In this document: one piece after another, positions 9,689-16,409 of the stretch
How the letters are laid out: every line of letters starts with the position of its first letter
Numbering within the stretch: position 1 is the stretch's first letter
Source: Anaerolineales bacterium
Lineage (GTDB): Bacteria; Chloroflexota; Anaerolineae; 4572-78; NAK82
Assembly: GCA_024643945.1 (NCBI GenBank)
Contig: JAHELX010000062.1
Location: 1 to 16,869, forward strand
Reading direction: 5' to 3'
DNA: 16,869 nucleotides
Notes under the pieces: generated by a model
The model's database searches: none
The model's input: the letters and a program-made list of their open reading frames with translations, nothing else
Told to the model about the DNA's origin: nothing
Position numbers and translations under genes: made by a program

Positions 9689-11215
9689 ATGGCCGAGTAT
9701 CTTCTTGGCATTGATAGCGGCAGCACCGTGTGCAAAGCAGCGATCTTTGACCTAGAAGGTCGCGAGGTTCAGGTCGCCGGCCGCAAGATCGAACCTCAAT
9801 ACCCACATTCCGGCTGGACGGAACGCAGCATGGACCTCTTGTGGCAGAGCACGGCCGAGGCTGTCCGCGAGGTGATCACCGCTTCGGGCATTGACCCGAA
9901 ACAGATTGTTGGCGTGGGTGCTACGGGTCACGGCAACGGTTTATACCTTCTCGATAAGCAGGGCAAACCTGCGCGCCGGGGCATTCAGTCAATGGATACA
10001 AGAGCGGCCGGTATCATTAATGAGTGGAACGCTCGAGAATTACATAGCCAGGTGTTCCCCTACACTGTCCAGGCCTTCTGGCCTGCTCAGCCTAATGCGC
10101 TGTTGGCCTGGATCAAGCGCAACGAGCCCTACGTCTACAAACGGATTGGGGCCGTCTTGATGTGCAAAGACTACACCATCTATTGCCTGACTGGAGAGAT
10201 CACCACCGACTTCACCGACATGAGTGGCACCAGTCTGATGGACGTGAGGAACAAATGCTATTCCAGGGAATTGCTAGAATTGTATGATCTGACCGAACTG
10301 TGGGATGCGCTGCCAACGCTGGTGCACAGCTTTGAGGTGATCGGGAAGGTCATACCGGAGGCGGCCGAGGCGACGGGCCTGGCAGCCGGAACACCGGTAG
10401 TGGGCGGCATCTTCGACGTGGATGCCTCTGCCTTGGGTGCCGGGGTGTTCAAGCCTGGGCAAGCGTGTATCATTGCTGGGACTTGGAGCATCAACGAGAT
10501 CGTCACGGCGGAGCCCTTGGTTGACCCCTCTCTTTTCATGACCTCTATCTATACGGTCCCGGACTTATGGCTCACGATAGAGGCCAGCGCTACCTCGGCG
10601 ACCAACCTGGAATGGTTTGTCACCCATTTCTGCAGCGAAGAGCGGGCAGAGGCAGAGAAGCGCGGCATATCGGTATACGAAATGTGCAACGAAATGGTAG
10701 CCAGCCTGCCGCCGGGCGGGACGGATGTGATCTTCCATCCCTTCCTTTACGGTTCCAACGTGCAGCCGACAGCGCGGGCTGGTTTCTACGGTATCGCCGG
10801 TTGGCACACCAAAGCCCATGTGGTCAGGGCGCTTTATGAAGGGATTGTCTATTGCCATCTGAACCACATCGAGAAACTGCGTGAAGCAGGGGCGCAGATG
10901 GACGTGGCACGCCTTACCGGCGGCGGATCGCGCAGCCAGGTGTGGACCCAGATCTTCGCGGATACTATTCAACTGCCTGTAGAGGTGCCCGCAGGAGTCG
11001 AGATGGGAGCCCGGGGAGCAGCAATCTGCGCGGGCATCGGCGTGGGCGCGTACAAAGATCACGCTGAAGCGGTCGCGAAAGCCGTCAAGATCGAACGGCG
11101 GCAAGAGCCAAACCCGGAAGCTACTCCACACTATCTGGCGCGCTACGCCGAATACCAGCGTCTACTGCAAGCCATGCAGGAGCCGTGGGATCACTTGAGC
11201 CAGCTTGGCCAGTGA
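9689..11215 (+). CDS. FGGY-family carbohydrate kinase, L-xylulokinase/erythritol-kinase-like
   Basis: A 508-residue FGGY kinase. The ATP loop is GIDSGSTVCKAAIFD, and the text that follows (HSGWTERSMDLLWQ, GATGHGNGLYLLD) resembles E. coli LyxK, which has GWAERDM and GKGLFLLD at the same place. The likely catalytic base is D243 in GGIFDV. AGTWSINEI and EASATSATNLEWF also match the LyxK/EryA subgroup. The ATG at 9689 was preferred over an upstream TTG at 9614 because AAAGGGGG (9673-9680) precedes it at good spacing and because the family starts here. It belongs to a different subgroup from the kinase at 3765. Likely substrate: a ketopentose or polyol, not proven. Confidence 0.92.
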   Translation: MAEYLLGIDSGSTVCKAAIFDLEGREVQVAGRKIEPQYPHSGWTERSMDLLWQSTAEAVREVITASGIDPKQIVGVGATGHGNGLYLLDKQGKPARRGIQSMDTRAAGIINEWNARELHSQVFPYTVQAFWPAQPNALLAWIKRNEPYVYKRIGAVLMCKDYTIYCLTGEITTDFTDMSGTSLMDVRNKCYSRELLELYDLTELWDALPTLVHSFEVIGKVIPEAAEATGLAAGTPVVGGIFDVDASALGAGVFKPGQACIIAGTWSINEIVTAEPLVDPSLFMTSIYTVPDLWLTIEASATSATNLEWFVTHFCSEERAEAEKRGISVYEMCNEMVASLPPGGTDVIFHPFLYGSNVQPTARAGFYGIAGWHTKAHVVRALYEGIVYCHLNHIEKLREAGAQMDVARLTGGGSRSQVWTQIFADTIQLPVEVPAGVEMGARGAAICAGIGVGAYKDHAEAVAKAVKIERRQEPNPEATPHYLARYAEYQRLLQAMQEPWDHLSQLGQ

Positions 11216-11283: not shown

Positions 11284-12432
11284 ATGACATGGACATCAAG
11301 AGAACGGGTTATTGCTACTCTCGAACATCGTGAACCTGATCGGGTCCCAATTGATATAAATCCAGTACTGGACTTCTATCTGAACCTGAAAGGCTACCTG
11401 GGGCTGGAGATCGAGGAAGAAATCAAAGCCAGCTCTATGTTAGAAGTAGTTCCGCATCCCAAGGTGCTCTCCACAGTCGGCATAGACTTGATCGCCGTCA
11501 AGCTGGGTGCCCCAAAAGGTCGTCGCCCTTCACGCTCCACAGGAGATCTGGCAGTAAACGAGTGGGGCGTCGGTCTCAAGCGTCTCCGTCAGCCGGGCGG
11601 TGGGAGCTATATGGAACCAGTGCATCACCCTCTCGCTGATGCGACCATAGATGATCTGGAGAAGTATCCCTGGCCAGACCCTGATGCGCCAGGTCGAGGC
11701 GAGGGGGCAGAGGCAGTGGCTAAGCGGCTCTACGAAGATACCGACCTGGCATTGATGGGCCGCTTTGGGGGTCCAATTGTCGAGACGGCCCTATATATGA
11801 TGGGCTTCGAAAGATGGCTGGTTTGCGCTGCCAGCGAGCCCGAGTTCGCTGGCGTCCTGCTGGACAAGATCACAGATATTTCAATTGCGCTGGATCGGAT
11901 CGGCCTTGAGGCCACTGCCAAGTATCTGCAGATATTCAAGATTAGCGGCGATGATTTCGGAATGCAGACTGGGCCGTTGTACTCGCCCAAGATGTTTCGT
12001 GAGTTGTTTCTGCCCCGCCTGCGGCGGCGTTGGCAAGCGGCCCGGGAGTATCTTGATACGGTGAATTCCTCGGTCAAGCTGATGTTCCACAGTTGTGGCG
12101 GAATCCGCCCATTTATTCCCGATCTCATTGAGATAGGCCTCCAGGTACTTGATCCGGTGCAGCCCCGGGCTGCGGGTATGGATTCCGCAGAACTGAAGCG
12201 GGAATTTGGTGATCGCCTTACCTTTCACGGGGGTGTAGACGAACAGAAGGTGCTGCCCTTCGGATCAGAAGAGGATGTGGAAGCAGAGGTGCGCCTGCGG
12301 ATCAGAGCGTTTGCCCCCGGTGGTGGTTACATTCTAGCTCCTTCTCACTACGTTCAAGCAGATACCCCACCGGCCAACATAGTGGCTATGTGCCGTGCTG
12401 CACAACAGTACGGTCAGTATCCTATTTGTTAA
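11284..12432 (+). CDS. URO-D superfamily protein, methyltransferase-like (paralogue 3)
   Basis: A 382-residue protein with the classic opening SRERVIATLEHREPDRVPID. The middle has GDDFGMQTGPLYSPKMFREL, and the putative metal site is H269-S-C271-GG, so the H-x-C pair is intact. Near the end APGGGYILAPSH places a histidine where methyltransferases of the MtaA type have their second cysteine, which might act as a third metal ligand. The ATG at 11284 follows TGGAGGT (11270-11276). It lies 68 bases after the second kinase. As with the other two copies, no corrinoid protein gene accompanies it. A role in demethylating or decarboxylating a catabolic intermediate is plausible but not shown. Confidence 0.86.
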   Translation: MTWTSRERVIATLEHREPDRVPIDINPVLDFYLNLKGYLGLEIEEEIKASSMLEVVPHPKVLSTVGIDLIAVKLGAPKGRRPSRSTGDLAVNEWGVGLKRLRQPGGGSYMEPVHHPLADATIDDLEKYPWPDPDAPGRGEGAEAVAKRLYEDTDLALMGRFGGPIVETALYMMGFERWLVCAASEPEFAGVLLDKITDISIALDRIGLEATAKYLQIFKISGDDFGMQTGPLYSPKMFRELFLPRLRRRWQAAREYLDTVNSSVKLMFHSCGGIRPFIPDLIEIGLQVLDPVQPRAAGMDSAELKREFGDRLTFHGGVDEQKVLPFGSEEDVEAEVRLRIRAFAPGGGYILAPSHYVQADTPPANIVAMCRAAQQYGQYPIC

Positions 12433-12495
12433 CGTTAGAATTGGTTTTCTGCAATACATCCTAAGCCATAGCTATGACACAAAAGGAAGTTGAAT

Positions 12496-13089
12496 ATGGC
12501 CTTCATCCAAACTATCCCTGAAGCAGAAGCGACCGGCAAAGTGCGCGAGATGTACCAGCGTAACCTGAAGAAGCGGGGCTACGTGCCCAACTACACCAAG
12601 CTGCTGAGTCTGCGCCCCGAGGTCATGGAGGCCTGGGGCACTCTGCAGGAGGCCATCCGTTCCAAGATGTCGCTGCGCCAATGGGAACTGGTGACCATCA
12701 CCGTCGCGGCCAGTCTGCACTGTACCTACTGAATGCTGGCGCACGGGGCGGTGCTCCGTCAGAACTTCTTCAGCGCCGAGCAGGTGACCGCTATCGTCAA
12801 GGATTTTCGTAACGCCGGGCTGGAGCCAGCCGAAGTGGCTATGATGGCCTTTGCCCAAAAGGTGACCCTGAATGCCCACGAGATCACCCCAGAGGATATC
12901 GAGGTCTTGCGCACCTACGGCTTGTCAGACGCCGAGATTCTGGACATCACTCTGGCTGCGACGGCGCGCAGCTTCTTCGCTAAGCTGCTAGATGCACTGG
13001 GGGCTGAGCCGGACGCGGCGTATCTCGAGTTGGAAGAGGGACTACGCCAGGCGCTGGTGGGGAGGCGCCCGTTCGGGGAAGTGGCCTGA
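12496..13089 (+). CDS. AhpD/carboxymuconolactone-decarboxylase-family protein with in-frame TGA, probable selenoprotein
   Basis: A 197-residue protein if the TGA at 12730-12732 is read through. The text before it (MAFIQTIPEAEATGKVREMY, YVPNYTKLLSLRPEVMEAW) and after it (MLAHGAVLRQNFFSAEQ, then PAEVAMMAFAQKV, DAEILDITLAA and FFAKLLDALG) is continuous with one family in one frame. AhpD-like proteins use a redox motif CxxCxxxH (or SxxCxxxH). Here C76-T-Y-TGA79-M-L-A-H83 puts the TGA exactly at the second cysteine. A GGU-loop hairpin lies just downstream. If terminated at the TGA, a 78-residue product without an active site would result. The ATG at 12496 follows AAAGGAAG. Likely role: thiol peroxidase or disulfide reductase protecting against peroxides. 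Alternatives are a nonsense mutation or a base error (TGC or TGT to TGA). Confidence 0.8.
12730..12732 (+). other. Candidate selenocysteine codon (TGA)
   Basis: In-frame TGA at residue 79 of the AhpD-like gene, flanked by CAC TGT ACC TAC and ATG CTG GCG CAC. Seven genes in the window end in TGA in the ordinary way (3301, 5310, 8544, 11213, 13087, 15063, 15925), so a general reassignment of TGA is not supported. Confidence 0.7.
12743..12759 (+). promoter_or_regulatory. Candidate bacterial SECIS hairpin
   Basis: Bases 12743-12749 (ACGGGGC) pair with 12753-12759 (GCTCCGT), seven pairs including one G-U, around a three-base loop GGT (12750-12752). The stem starts 10 bases after the TGA, and the loop begins 17 bases after it, with G at the first two loop positions. 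This is the size and spacing expected of the SelB-binding upper stem-loop in bacterial selenoprotein mRNAs such as fdhF. The hairpin lies inside the coding frame, as it must in bacteria. A competing fold pairs 12736-12744 with 12751-12762 and has loop GGGGCG. Confidence 0.6.
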
Positions 13090-13184: not shown

Positions 13185-13970
13185 ATGACTACACTGGCAG
13201 ACATCACCCACCTGATCATTGATATGGACGGCGTGCTGTATCGAGGCGATAAACCACTGCCGTGTCTGCGCGAGTTCTTTACCTTCCTGCGCCAGCGACC
13301 GATCCCCTTCGTTCTGGCGACCAATAACTCGACCCGTACGCCCCAAGAAGTTGTGGGCAAACTGGCGGGCATGGGCGTAGAGATTTTCCCGGAAGAGGTA
13401 TTGACGTCAGGTCAGGCGACGGCTCGTTTCTTAGCCAGGGAATATCCTCGCGGGACGCGGATCCACGTTTTCGGCATGCCCTCGCTTCGGCAGGCTATGG
13501 AGGAAGAAGGCTTTGTGCTGGTCGACGAAGATGTGGCGGTAGTGGTAGCCAGCATGGACCGGGATGTGACCTACGAGAAGCTCAGGCGGGCGACGTTGCT
13601 GATCCGGGGCGGGGCTCGCTTCGTCGCCACCAACCGGGACCCGACCTATCCCTCTGAAGAGGGACTGATACCGGGCACCGGCTCGATGATCGCCGCGTTG
13701 GAGGCGGCCTCCGGCGTCAAGCCGAGGGCCATCGGCAAGCCGGAACCGACCATGTTCCAACTGGCTATGGTTCAGATGGATGCCAGGCTGGAGACGACGG
13801 CCACCATCGGTGATCGCTTGGATACCGACATCCTGGGTGGGCAGCGGGCCGGGCTTATTACCATCTGTGTGTTGTCAGGCTCCAGCAACCGAGCCGGGGC
13901 CGAGGCGTTTGGCCCAGATTTCATATTCGAAGACATCGCTGATCTGCTGGCTACCTGGCAGTCATTGTAG
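13185..13970 (+). CDS. HAD-superfamily sugar-phosphate phosphatase, NagD/AraL type (HAD-IIA)
   Basis: A 261-residue hydrolase of the HAD-IIA class. Motif I is D13-M-D15-G-V-L-Y, with D13 the expected nucleophile and D15 the general acid/base. Motif II is the ATNNST segment, motif III is K185 in GKPEP, and motif IV is GDRLDTD, with D210 and D215. The C2-type cap lies between motifs II and III. Family members dephosphorylate sugar phosphates, phosphoglycolate or nucleotides; in a kinase-rich locus it may remove dead-end sugar phosphates or act in the pathway itself. The ATG at 13185 has a poor ribosome site (GTGAGACG, starting near 13170). It lies 95 bases after the selenoprotein candidate; those 95 bases show nothing clear. 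Confidence 0.9.
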   Translation: MTTLADITHLIIDMDGVLYRGDKPLPCLREFFTFLRQRPIPFVLATNNSTRTPQEVVGKLAGMGVEIFPEEVLTSGQATARFLAREYPRGTRIHVFGMPSLRQAMEEEGFVLVDEDVAVVVASMDRDVTYEKLRRATLLIRGGARFVATNRDPTYPSEEGLIPGTGSMIAALEAASGVKPRAIGKPEPTMFQLAMVQMDARLETTATIGDRLDTDILGGQRAGLITICVLSGSSNRAGAEAFGPDFIFEDIADLLATWQSL

Positions 13971-15069: not shown

Positions 15070-15927
15070 GTGAAGTTTGTTGGATTACCGGAAATACTGG
15101 GCACATGCGTGGGAGAAGGCTGGGCGGTAGCTGCGTTCGACACCATCAATTTGGAAATAACCCGAGCCATTTTGAAGAGCGCTGATGCTGAGCGTGCGCC
15201 GGTTATTGTTATGCTCTTACCATCACACATCCACGAAGAAGACATGCCCAGCCTGACGGCCGCGATTCGCGCTGAAGCAGAAAGAGTAAATGTCCCCGTG
15301 GCCCTGCTTCTTGACCACGCGACCAACCTTAAACAAGTGATGGCTGGCATTCGCTTGGGCTGCTCAGCCGTGATGTTCGATGCCTCCGACCGCCCTCTGT
15401 TAGAAAACATTTCCCTTACCCGCCAGGTAGTGGAAATAGCTCACGCGGCTGGGGTGTCTGTAGAAGCAGAGTTAGGGCATGTGGGCGGCGGCGACGAGTC
15501 TGGAGCTAGGGCGTTTACTCAATCGGTTCTGACCCAGGTGGAAGAAGCTGAACGCTTTGTTACCGAAACCGGGGTGGATGCCTTGGCAGTGTCTATCGGC
15601 ACCGTCCACGGTCCCTATATAACCAAGCCTCGGCTGGATTTCGAGAGATTGAAGCAGTTGAGACAGAAACTTGATATCCCTCTGGTTCTGCACGGGGGCT
15701 CGGGGATACCGGACGAGGATATCCGACGGCTAATCACACTGGGCATTGATAAGATAAATGTCTGGACCGATGTGGCTTGGGCCTATATGAGCACAATCAA
15801 GCAGGAGCTGACCGATCCAGCAGGCCCTTATCCTTTGCATGACGTGCTCTCTGCCGGCCGAGCCGCTGCCGCAGGGGTTGTAACCGAAAAGATGCGTCTT
15901 TTTGGCAGCTCCGGCAAGGCAGTTTGA
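15070..15927 (+). CDS. Class II (zinc) ketose-bisphosphate aldolase, GatY/KbaY/Fba type
   Basis: A 285-residue zinc aldolase that reversibly cleaves a ketose bisphosphate to dihydroxyacetone phosphate plus an aldehyde. I chose GTG at 15070, which has GGAG (15057-15060) upstream and lies four bases after the previous stop; an upstream ATG at 15019 would overlap that gene by 47 bases. With this start the key residues fall at D82 and H83 (LLLDHATN), H180 (GTVHGPY), H208 (LHGGSG) and N230 (KINVWTD). These are the positions I recall for E. coli GatY/AgaY, so the zinc site and catalytic aspartate are intact. KINVW differs from the common KINVA. Natural substrate could be tagatose or fructose bisphosphate, or a related sugar. 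Confidence 0.93.
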   Translation: MKFVGLPEILGTCVGEGWAVAAFDTINLEITRAILKSADAERAPVIVMLLPSHIHEEDMPSLTAAIRAEAERVNVPVALLLDHATNLKQVMAGIRLGCSAVMFDASDRPLLENISLTRQVVEIAHAAGVSVEAELGHVGGGDESGARAFTQSVLTQVEEAERFVTETGVDALAVSIGTVHGPYITKPRLDFERLKQLRQKLDIPLVLHGGSGIPDEDIRRLITLGIDKINVWTDVAWAYMSTIKQELTDPAGPYPLHDVLSAGRAAAAGVVTEKMRLFGSSGKAV

Positions 15928-15949
15928 GGATAACACTCGTTGACAAAGC

Positions 15950-16409
15950 ATCGTGACGAATAGGAATGAGTGGGACGTGATAGCCATATCGTTAATCAAG
16001 CTTGCCGGGTACGTTTCTGGCAGGGGAGGCTCAGGGGACTGTAACATCGCCTGAGCAGTCTGGCCGATGCTCGGATCATTCCCCTGGAGCGCTGCTACCA
16101 GATAGGTGAAAAAACGGGCCGGGTCATTGTCGTTTTCATCGAGGGAAAGCCACGTGCGGGGATGGTCTAAGCCAGTCAGCCATACTGTGACGAGCGTGGT
16201 TTTGCCAAAGCCGGCCGGGACGGAGATGAGGGTCAGCGTGCAGCCCAACCGCAGCCCCTGGTTCAGTTTTTCGATGAGGCGGAGGCGCGGCGGCAAGTTA
16301 GGGCGGGACGGGGGATATAGAGTTTGGTGGCCAGGAGCGCAAAGTCCCGAGTGCCAGCGCGTGGTTGAACCCGTGGGTAGCAACACAAACAATATGAATT
16401 GCCGTTCAT
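15950..16409 (-). pseudogene. Remnant of a MalT/LuxR-type ATP-dependent transcriptional regulator
   Basis: Reading the minus strand from an ATG at 16409, the frame reaches LLATKLYIPR, the usual start of MalT-like regulators. The homology then jumps one base and continues SRPNLPPRLRLIEKLNQGL, the P-loop VPAGFGKTTLV, and WLSLDENDNDPARFFTYLV. Adding one base in the G run at 16310-16314 would join the two parts. After ITSHSFLFV the family text stops near 15950, where a full gene would run on for several hundred more residues including the HTH domain. So it is both frameshifted and cut off. The frameshift could be a homopolymer error; the truncation cannot. It lies 23 bases from the convergent aldolase stop and directly after comEC. 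Confidence 0.75.

What the first reader, a model, noticed from the sequence alone, without database searches (positions are those of the whole stretch)
12496..13089. AhpD-like selenoprotein with a CxxU redox centre
A single in-frame TGA interrupts an otherwise intact AhpD/CMD-family gene exactly at the second redox cysteine (C76-T-Y-U79-M-L-A-H83). Family relatives read SxxCxxxH or CxxCxxxH there, so the first position has also become Cys and the pair would be a selenenylsulfide. A random nonsense mutation landing on this one residue is unlikely. AhpD-like selenoproteins have been described in metagenomes, but one in this sugar/URO-D context appears unusual.
Basis: partly seen in the sequence, partly recalled or inferred. 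Interest (0 to 1): 0.9.

Follow-up and report, generated by a model that had tools for sequence, protein, structure and literature searches.

The report
Selenium-containing AhpD-like redox protein gene
The gene looks like a genuine bacterial selenoprotein, a small peroxide- or disulfide-handling enzyme with selenium in its active site, and it belongs to a family first described about twenty years ago, so it is real but ordinary.

Summary
In detail: a single in-frame TGA (12730-12732) sits in an otherwise open 197-codon gene, at the second redox position of an AhpD/CMD protein. The selenocysteine reading is strongly supported. In 96 distinct homologous genes read at DNA level (window included) that codon is Cys in 55, TGA in 41 and nothing else. 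Eleven of 11 UGA genes at >=50% identity (window included) form 6-7 of 7 pairs of one hairpin, its GGU or GUU loop 17 nt after the UGA; 10 comparable Cys genes pair no more than synonymous recoding predicts. All 7 pairs form in 14 of 41 UGA genes and 0 of 55 Cys genes. The hairpin meets published SECIS constraints. Of 20 genomes of UGA relatives, 18 have selB and 19 tRNA-Sec, each at least one. The window's own genome is not held, so its machinery is inferred. The claim that the first Cys is new is wrong: CxxC is the family norm. The family is known: AhpD-like, COG2128/TIGR01926, CxxU (2005). The URO-D neighbour appears to recur beside the nearest relatives only. Verdict: new member of a known kind; modest interest.

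The parts
12496..13089 (+). AhpD-like (peroxidase-related, CMD superfamily) selenoprotein gene, 197 residues read through UGA79, own stop TGA
   Evidence: PF02627, 43.8 bits, cut-off 23; TIGR01926, 109 bits, cut-off 81.8
12730..12732 (+). in-frame TGA, read as selenocysteine 79 (second redox position of CxxU)
12743..12759 (+). bacterial SECIS hairpin: 7-bp stem ACGGGGC/GCUCCGU starting 10 nt after the UGA, 3-nt loop GGU at 12750-12752 (17 nt after the UGA), -9.0 kcal/mol
   Evidence: constraints from PMC13188914 (passage)
12481..12489 (+). Shine-Dalgarno-like AAAAGGAAG before the ATG
   Evidence: sequence
11284..12432 (+). URO-D family protein, 63 bases upstream, same strand; probably co-transcribed (inference)
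13185..13970 (+). HAD-family phosphatase, 95 bases downstream, same strand

Best explanation
The gene encodes a selenium-dependent thiol oxidoreductase of the AhpD-like (COG2128/TIGR01926) selenoprotein family. Shown by sequence: UGA79 replaces a family Cys codon and is followed at a fixed distance by a SECIS hairpin shared with other UGA members. Inferred: SelB with Sec-tRNA inserts selenocysteine there; U79, activated by the E64/H83 proton relay, reacts with a hydroperoxide or disulfide; C76 resolves it as a selenenylsulfide; a thioredoxin-like or dihydrolipoamide donor re-reduces it. The likely role is peroxide or disulfide reduction. The physiological substrate is not shown.
For: Codon 79 is TGA or Cys and nothing else in 96 distinct genes. 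The hairpin has 6-7 of 7 pairs in 11 of 11 UGA genes at >=50% identity (mean 6.73; synonymous-recoding mean 4.14; 0 of 2000 totals reach it; window alone P 0.013) against mean 2.70 (null 3.03) in 10 Cys genes. All 7 pairs: 14 of 41 UGA genes, 0 of 55 Cys genes. A model built without the window scores 57.3 bits there, E 7.2e-13, next 10.8. All four published constraints are met. selB is over cut-off in 18 of 20 UGA genomes and 10 of 20 Cys genomes; tRNA-Sec at >=55 bits in 19 of 20 and 9 of 20; Fisher P 0.014 and 0.0012. Relay residues E64, C76, Y78, U79, H83 have the spacing reported for PA0269 and align with solved relatives 6k40 and 2oyo. The window lies in a set (SH-aLRT 98) with 7 proteins known only as tails starting after this site.
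Against: The window's own genome is not held, so its Sec machinery was not seen. Four plain folds of 46-101 nt at the site are no more stable than shuffles (z -0.83 to 1.02). Covariation is weak as evidence: among the 10 close UGA genes without the window no pair changes on both sides. In all 41 UGA genes the covariation score beats every one of 1000 shuffles, but the 55 Cys genes also beat 997 of 1000, so that control reflects relatedness too. The one search set held 5 distant genes that I took after seeing their full hairpin. In the model search of 38 further loci the best three hits are Cys genes (L002 34.9, L008 20.5, L019 15.4 bits), above all 14 distant UGA loci searched, so the model scores coding likeness as well. 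The 97-86% relatives are tail-only proteins whose upstream stop is inferred; the nearest genes read as DNA are about 60% identical. No protein or enzyme data.
Confidence: 0.94

Rival explanations
1. A recent nonsense mutation: the gene is a young pseudogene whose only lesion happens to fall on the catalytic Cys.
For: A Cys codon TGC/TGT becomes TGA by one base change; the 118-residue tail starts at an ATG right after the stop.
Against: The same TGA recurs in 41 distinct genes from several phyla, with no TAA or TAG at this site, and close UGA genes share a hairpin that close Cys genes lack.
Confidence: 0.02
2. A sequencing or assembly error at one base.
For: Reads could not be examined.
Against: The 97%-identical P0118, listed on a contig of 3989 bases, starts at the same ATG after the site; the window element fits a SECIS model built from other genomes.
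Confidence: 0.01
3. A real stop: two products, a 78-residue N-terminal piece and a separate 118-residue protein starting at the ATG after the TGA.
For: Database gene calls list many such tail-only proteins: 92 of the 120 best hits.
Against: The listed tails start at different codons (MLAHG, MAHG, MLRK, VLRK), as mechanical calls would; the split would divide the catalytic pair; Cys homologues are one chain.
Confidence: 0.02
4. UGA is reassigned (for example to Trp) throughout this organism.
For: None seen.
Against: 7 of the 14 window genes listed, this one included, end in TGA; relatives hold Cys, not Trp, at residue 79.
Confidence: 0.005

Closest known systems
AhpD-like selenoprotein, COG2128 / TIGR01926, CxxU ('AhpD-like 1' in the ocean survey): PMC1088965 (2005), PMC2398784 (2008), reviews PMC9312934 and PMC13188914; passages seen of each
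   Same: TIGR01926 match over cut-off, CxxU with Sec at the second position, bacterial SECIS directly downstream, Cys homologues common
   Different: Only lineage and gene neighbours (URO-D, HAD, sugar kinases); nothing found that sets the protein or its SECIS apart
AhpD of Mycobacterium tuberculosis and PA0269 of Pseudomonas aeruginosa (PMC3141380, passages)
   Same: Proton-relay spacing Glu-(12)-Cys-x-Tyr/His-Cys-xxx-His
   Different: Those use Cys, not Sec; other subfamily; no AhpC family hit among the window genes scanned
NF041238 AhpD_rel_CFYUT alkylhydroperoxidase-related (seleno)protein
   Same: Related by sequence (35.4 bits)
   Different: Far under its cut-off of 175 bits: not a member

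Membership tests
AhpD-like selenoprotein (COG2128/TIGR01926) | Match to TIGR01926 over its curated cut-off | tested here: met
   109 bits against 81.8; COG2128 itself was not searched, the two reviews give both names for one example protein
AhpD-like selenoprotein (COG2128/TIGR01926) | CxxU motif, UGA aligned with the second Cys of Cys homologues | tested here: met
AhpD-like selenoprotein (COG2128/TIGR01926) | Bacterial SECIS: loop 3-9 nt, stem 4-16 bp, G in the first two loop positions, 16-37 nt from UGA to loop, energy <= -7.5 | tested here: met
   3-nt loop GGU, 7 bp, 17 nt, -9.0 kcal/mol; model hit
AhpD-like selenoprotein (COG2128/TIGR01926) | Sec machinery in the same genome | not testable with these tools
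   No whole genome held for the window; in 20 UGA relatives 18 have selB and 19 tRNA-Sec, each at least one; selA and selD were not searched
AhpD-like selenoprotein (COG2128/TIGR01926) | Sec is incorporated and the protein is redox-active | not testable with these tools
   needs protein chemistry
AhpD (alkyl hydroperoxidase D adaptor of AhpC) | Five-residue proton relay Glu, Cys, Tyr/His, Cys, His | tested here: met
   E64, C76, Y78, U79, H83, with Sec for the second Cys
AhpD (alkyl hydroperoxidase D adaptor of AhpC) | Works with a partner AhpC | tested here: inconclusive
   no AhpC family hit among the window genes scanned; the rest of the genome is not held
NF041238 AhpD_rel_CFYUT | Score over cut-off | tested here: not met
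   35.4 against 175 bits

The most novel reading that the evidence does not exclude
In one clade the Sec-form AhpD has become a fixed partner of a URO-D-family protein in a sugar-kinase/aldolase operon. There it would protect or recycle a redox-sensitive cofactor or intermediate of that pathway instead of acting as a general antioxidant.
Probability: 0.1. Interest if true: 0.45.

Novelty: new member of a known kind. Interest (0 to 1): 0.3.

Why it matters
Gene callers would cut this gene in two, as they appear to have done for many relatives: 92 of the 120 best hits to its tail are tail-only proteins. Recognising it corrects the annotation and adds a lineage not found among the genomes searched to a known selenoprotein family. 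The short SECIS, with its Cys controls, is a clean computational example. Sec and Cys forms do not form two separate clades on the tree, so the family suits the study of Sec gain and loss.

Tried and rejected
Pseudogene, sequencing error, two-protein and reassigned-code readings were weighed and rejected (see rivals). The antisense ORF 12472-12879 is taken as a shadow of the coding strand, without a further test. Four plain folds at the site gave no significant stability, which is why fixed-register, synonymous-recoding and Cys-control tests were used. Rfam gave no match in the window and there is no tRNA in it. A single-protein scan of genome contigs found no relative; an alignment scan then gave 76 loci. 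A viral-contig scan gave none. Promoter- and terminator-like sites were within shuffle levels. No structure was predicted. Covariation was tried as proof and demoted.

Limits of counts. The selB and tRNA-Sec comparison used 20 of the 22 UGA loci (L007 and L058 left out) and 20 of the 49 Cys loci in which residue 79 was read, chosen by hand before the machinery was searched. The 55-bit line for tRNA-Sec was set after seeing the scores, because weaker hits lie in the range of second hits in the same genomes; two Cys genomes at 50-51 bits and UGA genome G001 at 45 bits count as lacking it. At Rfam's own cut-off 30 of 40 genomes match. Residue 79 was not read in L024, L029, L073, L075, L076 and L096. 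One duplicate (L077 = L001) was dropped. For alignment A2 I took the 10 close UGA loci and 5 of the 6 distant sequences with full pairing (L100 left out), after seeing their pairing. In the tree, loci under 37% identity were left out, 4 of the first 60 full-length proteins were skipped because my pattern did not match, and 30 of the 91 eligible tail proteins were used. In one search, 38 loci were searched with default filters.

Full report
What is there. The frame 12496-13089 (+) is open for 197 codons but for one TGA at codon 79. It begins with ATG after an AAAAGGAAG stretch and ends in its own TGA. The read-through protein matches PF02627 (43.8 bits) and TIGR01926 peroxidase-related enzyme (109 bits, cut-off 81.8). 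The tail alone scores 58.8 bits, under the cut-off.

Homologues as proteins. Among 120 listed hits (of 1103) the best is 67% identical; 96 read CxxC, 13 SxxC, 5 NxxC and 6 escaped my pattern. Searching with the 118-residue tail brought P0118 (97%), P0122 (88%), P0123 (86%) and many more short proteins. Of its 120 listed hits 92 are tail-only proteins that start after the site; of the 93 short proteins printed only P0202 starts before it, and that one has Cys. I read the tail-only ones as selenoprotein genes cut by gene callers; their upstream stop was not seen.

Homologues as DNA. A scan of GTDB genome contigs gave 76 loci. A search of 298 genomes of the class of G001 gave 25 matches at E <= 1e-20 in 24 genomes: 19 with one TGA, 6 with no stop, none with TAA or TAG. 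Over both sets and the window, codon 79 could be read in 97 hits (96 distinct): 41 distinct TGA, 55 Cys, none other. Record titles of TGA carriers name, among others, Anaerolineae, Anaerolineales, Chloroflexi, Armatimonadetes, Tectomicrobia, Deltaproteobacteria, Gemmatimonadetes and Halobacteroidaceae.

SECIS. In the window a stem starting 10 nt after the UGA, ACGGGGC-GGU-GCUCCGU, forms 7 pairs (-9.0 kcal/mol) with its loop 17 nt after the UGA. Published constraints are a 3-9 nt loop, a 4-16 bp stem, a G in the first two loop positions, 16-37 nt from UGA to loop, and energy of -7.5 or lower (PMC13188914, passage); all are met. The 11 UGA genes at >=50% identity (window included) hold 6 or 7 of 7 pairs in this register (mean 6.73). 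Recoding the same peptides with each gene's own synonymous codons gives 4.14, and none of 2000 totals reaches the observed one; single-gene P values run from 0.002 to 0.067. These genes are related, so they are not 11 independent tests. Ten Cys genes at >=50% average 2.70 (null 3.03), 26 at 37-50% average 2.88 (null 2.81) and 19 below that 3.11 (null 3.20). L026 (UGA, 39%) has 7. The 29 more distant UGA genes average 4.69 (null 3.50, 0 of 2000), with as few as 2 of 7 in some, so part of that group must use another register or form. All 7 pairs form in 14 of 41 UGA genes and 0 of 55 Cys genes.

Covariation and model, with their limits. On 15 UGA regions without the window, 98.0% of cells pair and 4 of 7 pairs change on both sides (0 of 500 shuffles; further pair types 2 of 500), and no slid version comes near. 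But five of the 15 were distant genes taken because they pair fully. In the 10 close genes alone no pair changes on both sides. In all 41 UGA genes the score is 0.214 against 0.150 shuffled (0 of 1000), while the 55 Cys genes give 0.176 against 0.120 (3 of 1000), so the shuffle control does not separate structure from relatedness. I therefore lean on the recoding and Cys comparisons. The model from the 15 finds 12730-12771 at 57.3 bits, the next window site at 10.8. In 38 other loci the best hits are L002 34.9, L008 20.5 and L019 15.4, all Cys genes at the aligned place, while the 14 distant UGA loci in that set stay at or under 14.3: the model scores likeness of coding sequence too. L002 keeps 6 of 7 pairs (recoding P 0.14) and may be a recent Sec-to-Cys change (inference).

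Machinery. No genome is held for the window. In 40 genomes of relatives SelB (TIGR00475) passes its cut-off in 18 of 20 UGA and 10 of 20 Cys genomes; tRNA-Sec of at least 55 bits is found in 19 of 20 and 9 of 20. Each UGA genome has at least one of the two. Fisher P 0.014 and 0.0012, ignoring relatedness. selA and selD were not searched.

Tree. On 134 rows with residue 79 masked, the window falls in a set of 8 (SH-aLRT 98) with P0118 and P0122-P0127, all tail-only. Sec and Cys forms are not separate clades: the tree needs 10 changes with tail-only proteins left out and 19 with them counted as Sec, though well-supported branches alone force only 3 (Cys group) or 4 (DNA-read Sec group). Of 130 inner branches 54 are drawn open and several rows are long, so the direction of change is not claimed.

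Mechanism. E64, C76, Y78, U79 and H83 repeat the spacing of Glu36, Cys48, Tyr50, Cys51 and His55 of PA0269, an AhpD-like protein with weak, thiol-dependent H2O2 reduction; M. tuberculosis AhpD has Glu118, Cys130, His132, Cys133 and His137 (PMC3141380, passages). Of 97 rows, 38 read E-C-Y-U-H and 26 E-C-Y-C-H. I infer a selenolate at U79 as the attacking group and C76 as the resolving one; which Cys attacks in AhpD is recalled, not read. The reducing partner is not identified.

Context. The 14 genes listed lie on the + strand; gaps around this gene are 63 and 95 bases. Neighbours are three URO-D-family proteins, two FGGY kinases, two ABC permeases, a cupin, a fused E1 dehydrogenase, an FGE-like protein, a HAD phosphatase, a hydroxyacid dehydrogenase and a class II aldolase. 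URO-D hits P0217/P0218, P0223 and P0257 have longest contigs of 3989, 2792 and 12772 bases, the lengths also listed for tail proteins P0118, P0127 and P0123. This suggests, without showing it, that the pair recurs. With 14 window proteins searched against the loci held, window-type genes beside an AhpD gene turned up in 4 loci only: FGE-like (L011, Cys), ABC permeases (L043 and L045, Cys; L045 also an aldolase) and E1 (L101, UGA); no URO-D. Many loci are short, so this is a partial view. Nineteen neighbour proteins of 9 close UGA loci show no shared family next to the gene, except that L001 also has a HAD-type protein near it (L004 was not scanned).

Known or new. 'AhpD-like protein', COG2128, CxxU, with predicted SECIS, was reported in 2005 (PMC1088965, passages), listed with two selenoproteins in the 2006 survey (PMC1794560, passages), and as 'AhpD-like 1' with 299 members in 2008 (PMC2398784, passages). 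Reviews list it under COG2128 and TIGR01926 with the same example protein (PMC9312934, PMC13188914, passages). The window gene meets that definition. A search for selenoprotein, Anaerolineae and AhpD (19 papers with two of three terms, 15 listed) listed none with all three; this speaks for that search only. Confidence was lowered from 0.95 to 0.94 after weakened the covariation argument.

Noticed in passing
L002:9998-10039: A Cys (TGC) relative keeps 6 of 7 SECIS pairs and 34.9 bits in the SECIS model, and its genome has selB and tRNA-Sec: possibly a recent Sec-to-Cys replacement.
   Followed up: partly
L047, TGA at 9995 (+) and 6760 (-): Two AhpD-like genes with UGA about 3 kb apart on opposite strands, each with a full 7-pair hairpin of different sequence (ACGGAGC/GCUCCGU and AUGCAAC/GUUGCAU).
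   Followed up: partly
L026, TGA at 9995: A UGA member with Ser at the first redox position (SxxU instead of CxxU) and all 7 SECIS pairs.
   Followed up: no
L081, L082, L086, L089, L091-L093, L097: Distant UGA homologues (AHxHDLR type) do not form the full hairpin in this register (2-4 of 7 pairs); some fold a different one further on, so a second SECIS form is possible.
   Followed up: no
window 15730-16392 (-): A 220-residue open frame whose start looks like a MalT/LuxR-type ATPase (recalled motif) but has no Pfam match at 0.001; perhaps a broken regulator.
   Followed up: partly
L101 (E1-like at 47, AhpD-like UGA gene at 1501): Another AhpD-like UGA gene lies near an E1-type dehydrogenase gene; in the window the two are 10 kb apart. 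A link to lipoamide as reductant could be tested.
   Followed up: no
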